DNA of 20,434 nucleotides, taken from positions 1-20,434 of IMG/VR virus record IMGVR_UViG_3300048928_000301. The stretch is one strand, 5' to 3'. The DNA is from a virus. Below, piece after piece: positions 7,710 to 11,084 of this stretch. Below the pieces are notes generated by a model, which was given only the letters and a program-made list of their open reading frames with translations, searched no databases and was not told where the DNA came from. Position 1 is the first letter of the stretch. Every line of letters begins with the position of its first letter. The translations under genes and the position numbers were made by a program.

Positions 7710-7955
7710 CGGGTCGCTATCCCGCCAAGTGGGCTTGATTGTCAGATTGCGCGCGTGTGGTGGTGCCGGAGGGCATTCGCCGCAGCGGATCTTATGGCAA
7801 AGGTCGCGATAGCTCTGCACTCCCAAGTCAGCCACACGCTTTAAACTTGATGTGTAGAGCATTCGGCTATGACCGCAATCATCGCAAGCGACATATACGC
7901 TGGACAGCTCAATAACTAGGCGTTTGCCTTCATCAGAAATTGGGCCGTCTAGCAT
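7674..7955 (-). CDS. 93-residue zinc-binding-type protein convergent with the repressor
   Basis: The protein has CDDC near residue 24 and CGEC near residue 58, so it may bind zinc, with a helix between them and a Pro-rich stretch after. Its start overlaps the stop of the upstream gene (TAATG), and its last 36 bases lie antisense to the end of the repressor gene. Both genes follow a LexA box at 8266-8280, so this pair is probably SOS-induced. A role in antagonising the repressor is possible but unproven; I know no family for it. Confidence 0.7.
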   Translation of the reverse strand: MLDGPISDEGKRLVIELSSVYVACDDCGHSRMLYTSSLKRVADLGVQSYRDLCHKIRCGECPPAPPHARNLTIKPTWRDSDPSGVGLEYDLVY

Positions 7956-8212
7956 TATACACGCTCCATCTCTTCGACTTCTGGCGGCAATGGGTCGCCA
8001 TGAGCATAGATGAGCTTTGGAGGATCGAAATCGCCTGTCTCAGCATCGCCTGTATTGGCGAAGGCAATTACCATTGGGCTGCTTTTCGCCATTCTCTCAG
8101 CAGTGCGCTTTGCATGCGCAGCGTCTTTTGCTACGAAAGGTGTGTCAGGGTTCAGCTTGCCCCGATAACCCTTGCTGTAGCTCTGCACGATGTAGTTTGT
8201 CTCCATGCTCAT
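7955..8212 (-). CDS. 85-residue phage protein, first gene of LexA-controlled pair
   Basis: ATG 8212 is preferred over 8218 because it lies eight bases after GGGAG. The product starts MSMETNYIVQSYSKGYRGKL, continues with a KDAAHAKRTAERMAKSSP helix and ends in an acidic tail. It looks like a small alpha/beta protein common in rhizobial phages, but I cannot name it. The LexA box lies about 54 bp upstream. Under SOS it would be expressed when the prophage is induced, as Tum is in phage 186. Confidence 0.7.
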   Translation of the reverse strand: MSMETNYIVQSYSKGYRGKLNPDTPFVAKDAAHAKRTAERMAKSSPMVIAFANTGDAETGDFDPPKLIYAHGDPLPPEVEEMERV

Positions 8213-8265
8213 TAACATTACTCCCTGTTCCGCTTGTCATGTGCGACAGGATGATTTATAGATTA

Positions 8266-8280
8266 GAACAAATCAAGAAC
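8266..8280 (-). promoter_or_regulatory. LexA (SOS) box, alphaproteobacterial type
   Basis: GTTC-N7-GTTC is exact on the minus strand (GAAC at 8266-8269 and 8277-8280 on the plus strand), the established LexA site of Alphaproteobacteria. A TATAAAT -10-like element lies a few bases downstream in the direction of the 8212 gene, so LexA bound here would block that promoter. The surrounding gap 8219-8397 otherwise shows no gene. Confidence 0.75.
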
Positions 8281-8397
8281 ATTCTTGAGGAAAGGTTAAT
8301 GGCGACTTGCCGCCGCAAAGGTTGCGATCAACGACAAGATAATCACAAACTTTGACTGTGGATAACGTGTAAAAATGCGAACGAAAGCCTTTGCCCC

Positions 8398-8438
8398 TTG
8401 ACACGACTTTCATTCCTTACTTCTCAGCTAACTGAGAA
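8398..8438 (+). promoter_or_regulatory. Promoter/operator candidate of the DprA-like cassette
   Basis: TTGACA at 8398-8403 is a perfect -35. A 7-bp palindrome, TTCTCAG/CTGAGAA with a four-base centre (8421-8438), occupies where the -10 would be, and no good -10 is seen at 17 bp. The palindrome could be an operator or an mRNA hairpin in the leader; it is embedded in a wider CACGA/TCGTG pairing. The ribosome site GGGGGG (8473-8478) and a TTG start follow. Confidence 0.45.
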
Positions 8439-8483
8439 TCGTGTTAAAAATTAACAAATTGCTTTTTACTCTGGGGGGTTAAA

Positions 8484-9251
8484 TTGCTCTTAGATACGGG
8501 TACTAGAACGTTGGTTGCACAACAGAGACATACAGATAGCACGTTTAATCGACGGTCTCGTTATGTCGCACCTGCATCCGTTTTTGAAACGCCCTTAAGC
8601 GAGCTATTATCCCATGCTGGCCGCTCCATCACAAAGCAGCAAGAGAGCTTATTTCGTAAGCCTGAAGAAAATGATCCTGTTATATTTTGGTCGGGAGATA
8701 TCGACCTTTTAAAATTACCCAGTGTTTCCGTTATTGGTGCTCGCTCAGTAACTGAGGAAGGTCGCGCGCGCGCGCGCCGGGTAGCGAAGGGCTTGGCTTC
8801 AGCGGGCGTAGTTGTGACCAGTGGTCTTGCTAAGGGTGTAGATACAGCGGCCCATAGTGGCGTCATTGCAGCTGGTGGCAAAACAATTGCTGTCATTGGC
8901 ACCCCCTTAAATAAAGCTTATCCTGCGGAAAATACCCAGCTACAAGAAACAATATACACCAATCATCTACTCATATCGCAATTTCAGCCGGGGCAGAGGA
9001 CATTTCAATCTGACTTCCCTAAACGTAATCGACTGATGGCAGCAATATCTGATGCCAGCGTTATAGTTGAAGCGTCCGATACCTCTGGTACACTTCATCA
9101 AGCAGCTGAATGTATCCGCCTTGGTCGATGGTTGTTTATAATGCGATCTGTCGTTGAAGATGAAAAGTTAACTTGGCCTAAGCGCTTTTTGGATAATCCG
9201 AAAACGATTGTTCTGACCAGTGTTAATGACATTCTAAATCGGATTTTATAA
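8484..9251 (+). CDS. DprA/Smf-like Rossmann (SLOG-type) protein, no SAM or WH domain
   Basis: The 255-residue product starts at TTG 8484 behind a GGGGGG ribosome site. From residue about 80 it follows DprA closely: SVIGAR (82-87), SGLAKGVDTAAH (113-124), AVIGTPLNKAYPAEN (136-150), FPKRNRLMAA (178-187), VIVEASDTSGTL (193-204). DprA binds single-stranded DNA and loads RecA in natural transformation. The usual N-terminal SAM and C-terminal winged-helix domains are absent; about 80 residues of unrelated sequence precede the core. One base separates it from a phosphoribosyltransferase gene, so the pair should be coupled. Base composition is AT-rich compared with its neighbours, suggesting transfer. 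A nucleotide-sensing SLOG role in defence is an alternative. Confidence 0.85.
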   Translation: MLLDTGTRTLVAQQRHTDSTFNRRSRYVAPASVFETPLSELLSHAGRSITKQQESLFRKPEENDPVIFWSGDIDLLKLPSVSVIGARSVTEEGRARARRVAKGLASAGVVVTSGLAKGVDTAAHSGVIAAGGKTIAVIGTPLNKAYPAENTQLQETIYTNHLLISQFQPGQRTFQSDFPKRNRLMAAISDASVIVEASDTSGTLHQAAECIRLGRWLFIMRSVVEDEKLTWPKRFLDNPKTIVLTSVNDILNRIL

Positions 9252-9252
9252 C

Positions 9253-9912
9253 ATGCAGGTGCATTATTGTTGTGTTTATTATTCCGAGCTAGCTCATAAA
9301 AACGTGGCAAGAACAGAGCCTTACTGGCAATCTAGGGCTTTTTCTTGGGCTGTTAAAACAGGTGAATTTAAGAATAATTTTACTGTTATATATCGCAAAA
9401 AGCCAATTAGTATAAATAAAACAAACATTCATAGGGCGAGAGAGATCTTTGGAAGCTTTATTGAAGCTATTCTTAAGCAAGAAAAAGTTGATGATGATGT
9501 GCTCTTGATTCCCATCCCTTCTAGAGACGCGACATTAGAAGTAGATAATTATCGATCACTAATGATGGCAAAATGTTCGCTGGTTAATAGTGATAGGAAG
9601 CCTAATATATATGATGGCTTAAGATGGTCAGAGCCCCTTAAAAAAGCACACGAAGGTGGGCCGCGCAGCAGAGAAGAACTAAAAAAGTATCTAAAGTTGA
9701 TAAGTGACGTTAAAGGTAAAAAAGCGTTTCTGATTGATGATATTTTCACAAAAGGCGGTACTTTACTTGCATCAAAGGACGCACTCGAAGCAGCGGGTGT
9801 GGAGGTTCTCGGCGCAATTACTGCCGCAAAAACAGTTTATGATTTTAATACTGAGCCATTTGGCTACCAATGTATCGACCTGAGTAACGAACTCAATGAC
9901 TATGTTGCTTAG
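9253..9912 (+). CDS. ComFC-like type I phosphoribosyltransferase
   Basis: The 219-residue protein carries the PRPP-binding loop AFLIDDIFTKGGTL (158-171) of type I phosphoribosyltransferases, and LIPIPS near 85-90 where ComF proteins have VPVPL. The N-terminal half is not that of a nucleobase salvage enzyme, and the CxxC zinc motif usual in ComFC is absent. ComFC takes part in DNA uptake and is reported to work with ComFA and DprA in Bacillus. ATG 9253 starts one base after the dprA-like stop with only a weak ribosome site, fitting translational coupling. Transferase activity and substrate are unknown. Confidence 0.82.
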   Translation: MQVHYCCVYYSELAHKNVARTEPYWQSRAFSWAVKTGEFKNNFTVIYRKKPISINKTNIHRAREIFGSFIEAILKQEKVDDDVLLIPIPSRDATLEVDNYRSLMMAKCSLVNSDRKPNIYDGLRWSEPLKKAHEGGPRSREELKKYLKLISDVKGKKAFLIDDIFTKGGTLLASKDALEAAGVEVLGAITAAKTVYDFNTEPFGYQCIDLSNELNDYVA

Positions 9913-9918
9913 GCTATA

Positions 9919-9943
9919 CCCCGCTTCAGCGGAGTTTCTTTTT
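9919..9943 (+). terminator. Terminator of the DprA-like/PRTase cassette
   Basis: CCGC and GCGG around a TTCA loop (9921-9932) precede TTTCTTTTT, immediately after the PRTase stop. The stem is short, so it is probably weak, but it is well placed. Confidence 0.55.
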
Positions 9944-9946
9944 GCC

Positions 9947-9981
9947 GCAAAATAAAACTCCCCGACCGTCAGGATGGGGAG
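9947..9981 (-). terminator. Terminator downstream of csbD-like gene
   Basis: On the minus strand CTCCCC (9981-9976) pairs with GGGGAG (9963-9958), followed by TTTTATTTT. It lies about 20 bp after the csbD stop and faces the cassette's terminator. Confidence 0.75.
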
Positions 9982-9999
9982 ATAGAATTGGTAAATGAG

Positions 10000-10191
10000 T
10001 TAAGCCTTGTCGACTGCAGACTTTACAGCGTTCTTTGCCTTGCCTTTTGCGTCCTGAGCCTTGCCCTTTAACTTCTGGGCTGCGCCCTCTGCCTCAACCT
10101 TTCGGTTGCCAGATAGCTTGCCAGCTTCTTCCTTAATGGCTCCGCCAGCCTGATTGGCTTTTCCCTTGATTTTATCGGTGGTGCTGCTCAT
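10000..10191 (-). CDS. CsbD-family stress protein
   Basis: ATG 10191, behind GGATGAAGAG, gives 63 residues: MSSTTDKIKGKANQAGGAIK and then repeated K-G-K-A/E blocks. The pattern is the CsbD family, small hydrophilic, Lys/Ala/Gly-rich helical proteins induced by general stress. It is preceded by an EcfG-type promoter at 10233-10257 and followed by its own terminator, so it is a single-gene unit. Its place inside a prophage suggests a moron gene that benefits the lysogen. The biochemical function of CsbD is not established. Confidence 0.9.
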   Translation of the reverse strand: MSSTTDKIKGKANQAGGAIKEEAGKLSGNRKVEAEGAAQKLKGKAQDAKGKAKNAVKSAVDKA

Positions 10192-10232
10192 CTCTTCATC
10201 CTTTATTGATGGGAAATTCTTCGCAGCTGGAA

Positions 10233-10257
10233 AACGAAGATACAGCCAAAACGTTCC
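10233..10257 (-). promoter_or_regulatory. EcfG-type general-stress promoter of csbD
   Basis: GGAAC (10257-10253), exactly 16 bases, then CGTT (10236-10233) on the minus strand matches the alphaproteobacterial EcfG consensus GGAAC-N16/17-CGTT. The predicted start is about 30-35 bp before the csbD ATG. I infer control by the PhyR/NepR/EcfG cascade of the host. Confidence 0.75.
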
Positions 10258-10346
10258 GCTGAAATCGATGTGGATAAACGCCTTGGTGAGGCGCGCCCCG
10301 CTCTTCGGTTCACATCTCTCCACGTGCGTCTCTTATTTTGCATGTA

Positions 10347-10380
10347 CGTAAAACCCGCCGCAATCAGCTTGCAACGGGTT
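10347..10380 (-). terminator. Possible terminator of the lipoprotein gene
   Basis: On the minus strand AACCCG (10380-10375) pairs with CGGGTT (10357-10352), followed by only two further T residues. The stem fits but the T-run is short. Confidence 0.4.
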
Positions 10381-10406
10381 CACTCATTTTAAACCTGGCA
10401 ATCTTG

Positions 10407-10829
10407 TTACCGAGGGCCTCGCTTGACAGGTGTGAAGTCATCAGACTCAATAAACTTGGCGCCTCGACTATTATTGGTCGGACGAACAATCTGCGGTCTA
10501 TCCGGGCGGCTGTCTGGGCGAACTCCCGGCGGATTTGTCGGGCGGTAATCGGGCCGGGTGTTTGGACGGTTATCTGGGCGAGTATATTGATAATCTGGAC
10601 GGCGCGATGGTCGATCGTAGCGATCGCCTCTACGATAATAATCACGGTAATATCGGTCATCGCGATACCGCCGAGAATCATAACGCGGGCCGGAACTGTA
10701 AATCACAGTTGAGCCGCCATAGTATCCATCATATCCGCCACCGCTGTACGGATCGTTCACGCAGCCCATCAGCACAATAGAAACTATGCCCACTGACGCT
10801 GCTGATAAAATCTTCTTAATCGAGACCAT
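10407..10829 (-). CDS. Tyr/Arg/Pro-rich lipoprotein
   Basis: ATG 10829, behind GGAGAA, gives 140 residues. The first 22 are a signal peptide with positive start (MVSIKKILS), a hydrophobic core and a lipobox L-M-G-C with lipidated Cys23. The mature part is low complexity: Gly/Tyr-rich first, then repeated D-R/Y-Y-R and R-P-D-x-R blocks, ending with a charged tail. No catalytic fold is visible; such sequences may bind surface polymers or cell wall. It is likely anchored in the membrane facing the periplasm. Transcription is leftward, like csbD, and opposite to the phage operon beginning at 11056. Confidence 0.8.
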   Translation of the reverse strand: MVSIKKILSAASVGIVSIVLMGCVNDPYSGGGYDGYYGGSTVIYSSGPRYDSRRYRDDRYYRDYYRRGDRYDRPSRRPDYQYTRPDNRPNTRPDYRPTNPPGVRPDSRPDRPQIVRPTNNSRGAKFIESDDFTPVKRGPR

Positions 10830-11007
10830 CAAAATTCTCCGCGTGCGCGTAATGTAAACATGCAGATAACCTGATCGGTCCGAGTTGCAAGGGCAAGTCA
10901 CGATAAAAATCAGACTGCATGGACATGGCCATGGGACAAGATCGCGCCACCCCTGATTTGGAGGTATCTCTGCGCTGCGATTCTATCAGACCTCCCTTAT
11001 GATCAAT

Positions 11008-11084
11008 GCATAGTATGCGTTTATCACTTTAATTCTCGTTATGCATATTTTTAGATTGACTGCGTAGTTTGCGTTATGCATACT
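11008..11084 (+). promoter_or_regulatory. Rightward early promoter with operators
   Basis: TTGACT (11056-11061), a 17-bp spacer and CATACT (11079-11084) form the promoter of the rightward operon. Operator repeats surround it: GCATAGTATGC (11008-11018), TAGTATGCGTT (11011-11021), CGTTATGCATA (11037-11047) and TAGTTTGCGTTATGCATACT (11065-11084), the last an exact 20-base inverse copy of 6904-6923. The phage repressor should silence this promoter in the lysogen. A start in the -10 (ATG 11076) is thereby excluded for the first gene. The stretch 10830-11007 contains no gene I can support. Confidence 0.82.

What the first reader, a model, noticed from the sequence alone, without database searches (positions are those of the whole stretch)
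8398..9943. Compact DprA-like plus ComFC-like phosphoribosyltransferase cassette in a prophage accessory slot
Seen: two genes one base apart, with a TTG start, their own leader palindrome and terminator, clearly AT-rich relative to the phage genes around them, inserted between the immunity region and the rightward operon. The first is a DprA core without SAM or WH domains; the second has an intact PRPP loop (DDIFTKGGT) but no ComFC zinc motif. Known: DprA and ComFC both handle incoming single-stranded DNA in competence and are reported to be linked; SLOG-fold proteins, to which DprA belongs, also occur in nucleotide-signalling defence systems; accessory slots in prophages often carry defence genes. 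Inference: a phage-borne module acting on single-stranded DNA or a nucleotide signal, for superinfection exclusion or phage recombination. I know of no named system with exactly this pair.
Basis: partly seen in the sequence, partly recalled or inferred. Interest (0 to 1): 0.85.

Follow-up and report, generated by a model that had tools for sequence, protein, structure and literature searches.

The report
Compact ShosTA-type toxin–antitoxin defence pair
Two neighbouring genes in a temperate-phage genome form a shortened version of ShosTA, a known toxin–antitoxin anti-phage system, and sit in a cargo slot where related phages carry other defence genes; the pair is real and well supported, but it is not a new kind of system.

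Summary
The two genes are real. A (8484-9251) is a DprA-like Rossmann/SLOG protein; T (9253-9912) is a phosphoribosyltransferase with an intact PRPP loop. The pair already has a name: ShosTA. PADLOC calls A as ShosA (1.6e-69) and T as ShosT (5.3e-9). T's AlphaFold model (pLDDT 94.7) is closest to H. pylori ComFC (Z 11.7) and solved ShosT (Z 10.5). A DprA+PRTase pair in the P2 prophage hotspot protects against T7 and lambda (PMC9122126).

The linkage is strong. In 106 of 118 related A loci an intact T is adjacent, against 0 of 35 chromosomal DprA loci. No T lacked an intact A (0 of 41), while 12 of 118 A genes lacked an intact T, as expected for antitoxin and toxin. The slot is a cargo site: related phages carry there HEC-01, a GmrSD-type enzyme, HicAB or a STAND-like ATPase.

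Most likely mechanism: A restrains T, and infection frees T, which perturbs PRPP/purine metabolism (inferred from characterised relatives). New details: a short subclade, an exchange of PRTase partners, and a possible one-antitoxin/two-PRTase operon. Novelty: new member of a known kind.

The parts
8421..8438 (+). 7-bp-arm palindrome TTCTCAG-CTAA-CTGAGAA about 45 nt upstream of A; possible operator
   Evidence: the nearest relative, L009, has TTCTC-GGTT-GAGAA in its leader; the motif occurs 16 times in 2.0 Mb; it is absent from the leaders of 20 other clade loci
8484..9251 (+). A: ShosA-like antitoxin, DprA-type Rossmann (SLOG) fold, 255 aa, TTG start
9253..9912 (+). T: ShosT-like phosphoribosyltransferase, 219 aa; PRPP loop IDDIFTKGGT; no evident Shine-Dalgarno of its own, so probably translated by coupling to A
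9919..9943 (+). short GC hairpin followed by a T-rich run; weak terminator candidate
   Evidence: z -0.18; not found by the terminator scan
8219..11075 (.). variable cargo slot between gene 7955-8218 (-) and the rightward operon; holds A, T, a CsbD-like gene and a lipoprotein-like gene here, other cargo in related phages

Best explanation
The cassette is a compact ShosTA toxin-antitoxin module carried as cargo by a temperate phage, probably of Rhizobiales-type Alphaproteobacteria. T is the toxin: a ComFC/ShosT-fold phosphoribosyltransferase that binds PRPP and, when free, disturbs purine/PRPP metabolism and damages DNA. A is the antitoxin: a DprA-like protein translated first that counteracts T in the uninfected lysogen. 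Infection by a competing phage upsets this balance, T is freed and the infected cell stops supporting the invader. Shown here: gene structure, fold, family, conserved linkage, clade-level co-divergence of A and T, retention asymmetry, and the defence-cargo slot. Inferred from characterised ShosTA and DprA-PRTase relatives: toxicity, neutralisation, phage trigger and defence.
For: PADLOC: A = ShosA 1.6e-69, T = ShosT 5.3e-9; all 48 aligned relatives of each gene match the same models. Models: T pLDDT 94.7, closest to ComFC (Z 11.7) and ShosT (Z 10.5); A pLDDT 92.5, Z 27 to DprA and 23.5 to ShosA 8zva. T adjacent in 106/118 A loci of this lineage and 0/35 chromosomal DprA loci. T-anchored search: 41/44 with an open A alongside, the other 3 cut by the contig end. 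T broken behind an open A in L018, L027, L030 and L036. A and T distances correlate (rho 0.77, 0 of 1000 permutations). Related phages fill the slot with HEC-01, GmrSD/HEC-06, HicAB or a STAND-like ATPase. Literature: P2-hotspot DprA+PRTase protects against T7 and lambda (PMC9122126); ShosT as PRTase and pyrophosphatase disturbing the nucleotide pool, ShosA binding DNA, T7 Gp0.7 as trigger (Pu et al. 2025 as summarised in PMC12593503).
Against: No activity was tested. T's sequence match to ShosT is weak (34 bits), and it lacks the ~177-residue N-terminal part of E. coli ShosT. A lacks the SAM and WH parts and most of the DprA ssDNA patch, so sensing may differ. The retention asymmetry is modest (Fisher p 0.037), uses two differently anchored samples and counts related phages as independent.
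Confidence: 0.85

Rival explanations
1. A phage recombination aid: A loads recombinase or annealing protein on phage ssDNA, alongside Erf, YqaJ and NinB of the same phage, and T assists as a ComFC-like ssDNA handler.
For: A keeps the key ssDNA arginine (R87 = SpDprA R115); T's nearest solved fold is ComFC; Erf, YqaJ and NinB lie downstream.
Against: Related phages keep Erf/YqaJ-type genes but carry other cargo in the slot. 4 of 5 patch lysines and both aligned RecA-contact acids are lost. T lacks the ComFC zinc finger. The A lineage is separate from chromosomal DprA.
Confidence: 0.07
2. A nucleotide-signal system: T makes or modifies a nucleotide from PRPP and the SLOG fold of A senses it, as SLOG domains of ThsA sense cyclic ADP-ribose.
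For: A is a SLOG-fold protein (PF18306 7.1e-07) and resembles LOG and ThsA SLOG domains more weakly (Z 11-16); T has an intact PRPP site.
Against: A is far closer to DprA/ShosA (Z 23-27) than to ThsA (Z about 12). No separate effector gene lies between A/T and the neighbouring cargo. Characterised relatives behave as toxin-antitoxin.
Confidence: 0.06
3. A moron of no current defensive use: the cassette is decaying or neutral cargo.
For: AT-rich relative to the phage; some relatives have lost T behind an open A.
Against: Both frames are open and all motifs invariant in relatives are intact; linkage is conserved across bacterial and archaeal relatives.
Confidence: 0.05

Closest known systems
ShosTA, E. 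coli APEC O1 form (PDB 8zva, 8zvc, 8zvd; Pu et al. 2025)
   Same: DprA-like antitoxin plus PRTase toxin; same folds (Z 23.5 and 10.5); intact PRPP loop
   Different: Window T is 219 aa and aligns to ShosT only from residue 178 on; window A is 255 aa without SAM/WH; sequence identity 15-25% in the structural alignments
DprA + PRTase system of the P2-like phage hotspot (Rousset et al. 2022, PMC9122126; PADLOC PDLC03961/PDLC03962)
   Same: Compact two-gene pair in a prophage accessory slot; in the viral relatives compared here A precedes T; protects E. coli against T7 and lambda
   Different: The relatives taken as P2-type (clade I) have A of about 290-340 aa; window belongs to a separate shorter clade (II), with A about 34-42% identical to clade I members
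RqlHI / PsyrTA
   Same: DprA-like antitoxin restraining a PRTase-domain toxin; in RqlH the PRTase domain carries the genotoxicity
   Different: There the PRTase is fused to a RecQ-like helicase; the window has no helicase
ComFC and DprA of natural transformation
   Same: Closest solved fold of T is H. pylori ComFC (Z 11.7); closest of A is S. pneumoniae DprA (Z 27.2)
   Different: No ComFC zinc finger; A fails the DprA equivalog cut-off, lacks most of the ssDNA patch and is not in a host competence locus

Membership tests
ShosTA toxin-antitoxin / anti-phage system | DprA-like ShosA protein | tested here: met
   PDLC03961 1.6e-69; fold Z 23.5 to 8zva
ShosTA toxin-antitoxin / anti-phage system | PRTase-fold ShosT with PRPP loop | tested here: met
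   PDLC03962 5.3e-9; IDDIFTKGGT; fold Z 10.5 to 8zvc
ShosTA toxin-antitoxin / anti-phage system | The two genes adjacent and linked across genomes | tested here: met
   1-nt spacing; 106/118 and 41/41 testable loci
ShosTA toxin-antitoxin / anti-phage system | T toxic alone and neutralised by A | not testable with these tools
   only indirect: T never seen without an open A, A seen without T
ShosTA toxin-antitoxin / anti-phage system | Protection against phage | not testable with these tools
   shown for relatives only (PMC9122126)
Competence DprA (TIGR00732 equivalog) | Score above the equivalog cut-off | tested here: not met
   156.1 bits against 191.15
Competence DprA (TIGR00732 equivalog) | Basic ssDNA patch and RecA-contact acids | tested here: not met
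   R115 kept; 1 of 5 patch lysines kept; E235 and D243 replaced by A and W, third acid not aligned
ComFC | N-terminal 4-Cys zinc finger | tested here: not met
   absent from T; defined in PMC9005727
ComFC | comF family score (TIGR00201) | tested here: not met
   18.4 bits against 233.55
PsyrTA / RqlHI | RecQ-like helicase fused to the PRTase | tested here: not met
   T is 219 aa and matches only PsyrT residues 575-685 of 689

The most novel reading that the evidence does not exclude
The short clade (clade II, which includes the window) is a distinct ShosTA subtype in which the DprA-like antitoxin is an exchangeable hub: it is paired with different PRTases, some in tail-to-tail orientation and some two at a time, and may detect infection without the canonical DprA ssDNA/RecA surfaces.
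Probability: 0.25. Interest if true: 0.5.

Novelty: new member of a known kind. Interest (0 to 1): 0.3.

Why it matters
It places ShosTA in a defence-cargo slot of a temperate phage group of Rhizobiales-type hosts and separates a minimal form (Rossmann core plus bare PRTase) from the longer forms studied so far. If the minimal pair works, the SAM and WH domains of ShosA and the N-terminal part of ShosT are dispensable, which narrows where sensing and toxicity must lie. The slot itself is a place to look for further defence genes.

Tried and rejected
(1) Unnamed-system reading: rejected by PADLOC and solved structures. (2) Host competence gene: rejected; chromosomal DprA forms a separate clade without T, 0/35. 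(3) Patterns from the single protein T in viral contigs: no hits; the broad T alignment had no searchable stretch; a narrow alignment gave only 3 loci already known. (4) Megablast of the whole window against phage records: no match. (5) T in 200 genomes of the family of Nitratireductor: nearly all hits were ribose-phosphate pyrophosphokinase-like proteins, only about 4 at E below 1e-6. (6) Conserved leader palindrome: shared only with L009, absent from 20 other loci. (7) Cross-clade T in L097 and second T in L150: tree placements suggest exchange, but AU tests do not reject the alternatives (p 0.30), so not claimed. (8) Pu et al. 2025 and the H. pylori DprA-ssDNA paper were not held (the DOI tried returned an unrelated paper), so their content is cited second-hand. 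(9) ThsA-like and LOG-like SLOG domains appear only as weaker structural matches.

Full report
OBSERVATION. The window is a 20,434-base IMG/VR virus record with a CI/S24 repressor, replication genes, Erf, YqaJ, NinB, HNH and an integrase. A (8484-9251, TTG) and T (9253-9912, ATG) are intact and 1 nt apart. GC is 46% and 39%, against 51% elsewhere. A matches PF02481 (1.4e-52) with no SAM or winged-helix domain; T matches Pribosyltran (1.1e-07). T has no evident Shine-Dalgarno of its own (sequence), which suggests translational coupling to A (inference). The leader palindrome is present; the terminator is weak.

IDENTITY. PADLOC names A ShosA (1.6e-69) and T ShosT (5.3e-9); all 48 relatives aligned for each gene match the same models. 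A falls below the DprA equivalog cut-off (156.1 against 191.15 bits) and T far below the ComF cut-off (18.4 against 233.55). AlphaFold models are confident (T pLDDT 94.7, A 92.5). T's best structural neighbours are H. pylori ComFC (Z 11.7) and E. coli ShosT (Z 10.5 and 10.2), with ordinary APRT/OPRT enzymes from Z 9.1 down. A's are DprA (Z 27.2) and ShosA (Z 23.5).

LINKAGE. Searches with A found 80 genome loci and 80 viral loci. In the A tree the chromosomal DprA genes form one clade of 35 without T; 21 of these have a topA-sized gene just downstream. In the remaining lineage, 106 of 118 distinct A loci with enough downstream sequence have an intact T adjacent, against 0 of 35. Nearly all T genes start within 155 nt before to 20 nt after the A stop, most often with a 4-nt overlap. 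A T-anchored search gave 44 loci: 41 have an open A alongside, and in the other 3 the contig begins at T. By contrast 12 of 118 A loci lack an intact T, and in four (L018, L027, L030, L036) the T remnant is visible. That asymmetry (Fisher p 0.037) is what an antitoxin and toxin would show; it is modest, the samples are differently anchored, and related phages count as independent. A and T distances correlate (Mantel rho 0.77, 0 of 1000 permutations).

CLADES. A and T each split into two supported clades: I (taken as the P2/Pseudomonas-phage type, A about 290-340 aa) and II (short; the window; mostly 230-290 aa; including Bradyrhizobium, Methylobacterium, Nitratireductor and archaeal MAGs). Nearest A relative: Nitratireductor sp. 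B36, 62-65% identical. In L002, L011, L089 and L090 the PRTase lies tail-to-tail on the opposite strand. These four PRTases form one clade (100*), but their A partners do not (AU p 0.0004), so partners have been exchanged. L261 has a tail-to-tail arrangement in clade I. In L150 one A is followed by two overlapping PRTases.

SITE. Phages sharing the repressor-side genes or the rightward operon have other cargo between gene 7955-8218 and the operon: an AAA/DUF4276 pair called HEC-01 (L200), a GmrSD-type enzyme called HEC-06 (L195), a HicA toxin with a HicB-like partner (L193), a STAND-like ATPase (L194), and an unknown protein (L170). The slot is therefore a cargo site enriched in defence or TA genes, though only a handful of relatives could be compared.

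MECHANISM. Literature on relatives: the P2-hotspot DprA+PRTase protects against T7 and lambda, and its authors linked it to shosTA, syrTA (psyrTA) and rqlHI (PMC9122126). In RqlHI the PRTase domain is genotoxic and RqlI restrains it (PMC4670107). A 2025 review reports that ShosT is a PRTase and pyrophosphatase that disturbs purine metabolism, that ShosA binds DNA, and that T7 Gp0.7 is a trigger (Pu et al. 2025, as told in PMC12593503). The window pair keeps the catalytic signature, so the same scheme is the best guess. In A, the arginine equivalent to SpDprA R115 is invariant, but K119, K175, K202 and K225 are E, A, Q and S, and RecA-contact E235 and D243 are A and W (residue roles from PMC4066776; alignment). 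E. coli ShosA also lacks much of that patch (read from the alignment), so DNA binding by other residues is not excluded, but a DprA-like RecA-loading role is unlikely.

VERDICT. Observation confirmed; interpretation partly supported; a new, compact member of ShosTA in a phage defence slot.

Noticed in passing
L150:1301-3511: In a contig with Mu-like head genes, one ShosA-like gene is followed by two overlapping PRTases, one grouping with clade I and one with clade II: a possible one-antitoxin/two-toxin operon (the cross-clade placement is not significant by AU test).
   Followed up: partly
L002:6728-7279, L011:8701-9252, L089:6758-7321, L090:6781-7398: PRTase convergent with the DprA-like gene, 3' ends overlapping by 8-21 nt; one PRTase clade with A partners from two places in the A tree. 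L261 shows the same layout in clade I.
   Followed up: partly
L047, L052, L166 (actinobacterial loci): The PRTase beside the DprA-like gene carries ComF-like paired Cys motifs, so zinc-finger versions of T exist.
   Followed up: no
L005:786-1976 and L008:2938-4123: Bacteroides plasmid (L008) and human faecal phage (L005) carry a PRTase followed by a small SLOG-type protein (order T-A), L008 with an SSB gene upstream; the PRTase is about 26% identical to window T.
   Followed up: no
window 10000-10901: CsbD-like stress gene and a lipoprotein-like gene, both on the - strand, share the cargo slot; no match in the related phages compared.
   Followed up: partly
L197:5842-6618: Near the homologous slot, an open frame matches the second domain of Mtd (PF21916, 0.00014), the target protein type of diversity-generating retroelements.
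   Followed up: no
L195:3312-4091 and L170:5921-6868: Slot proteins of 259 and 315 aa without Pfam or PADLOC match; candidate unknown defence cargo.
   Followed up: no
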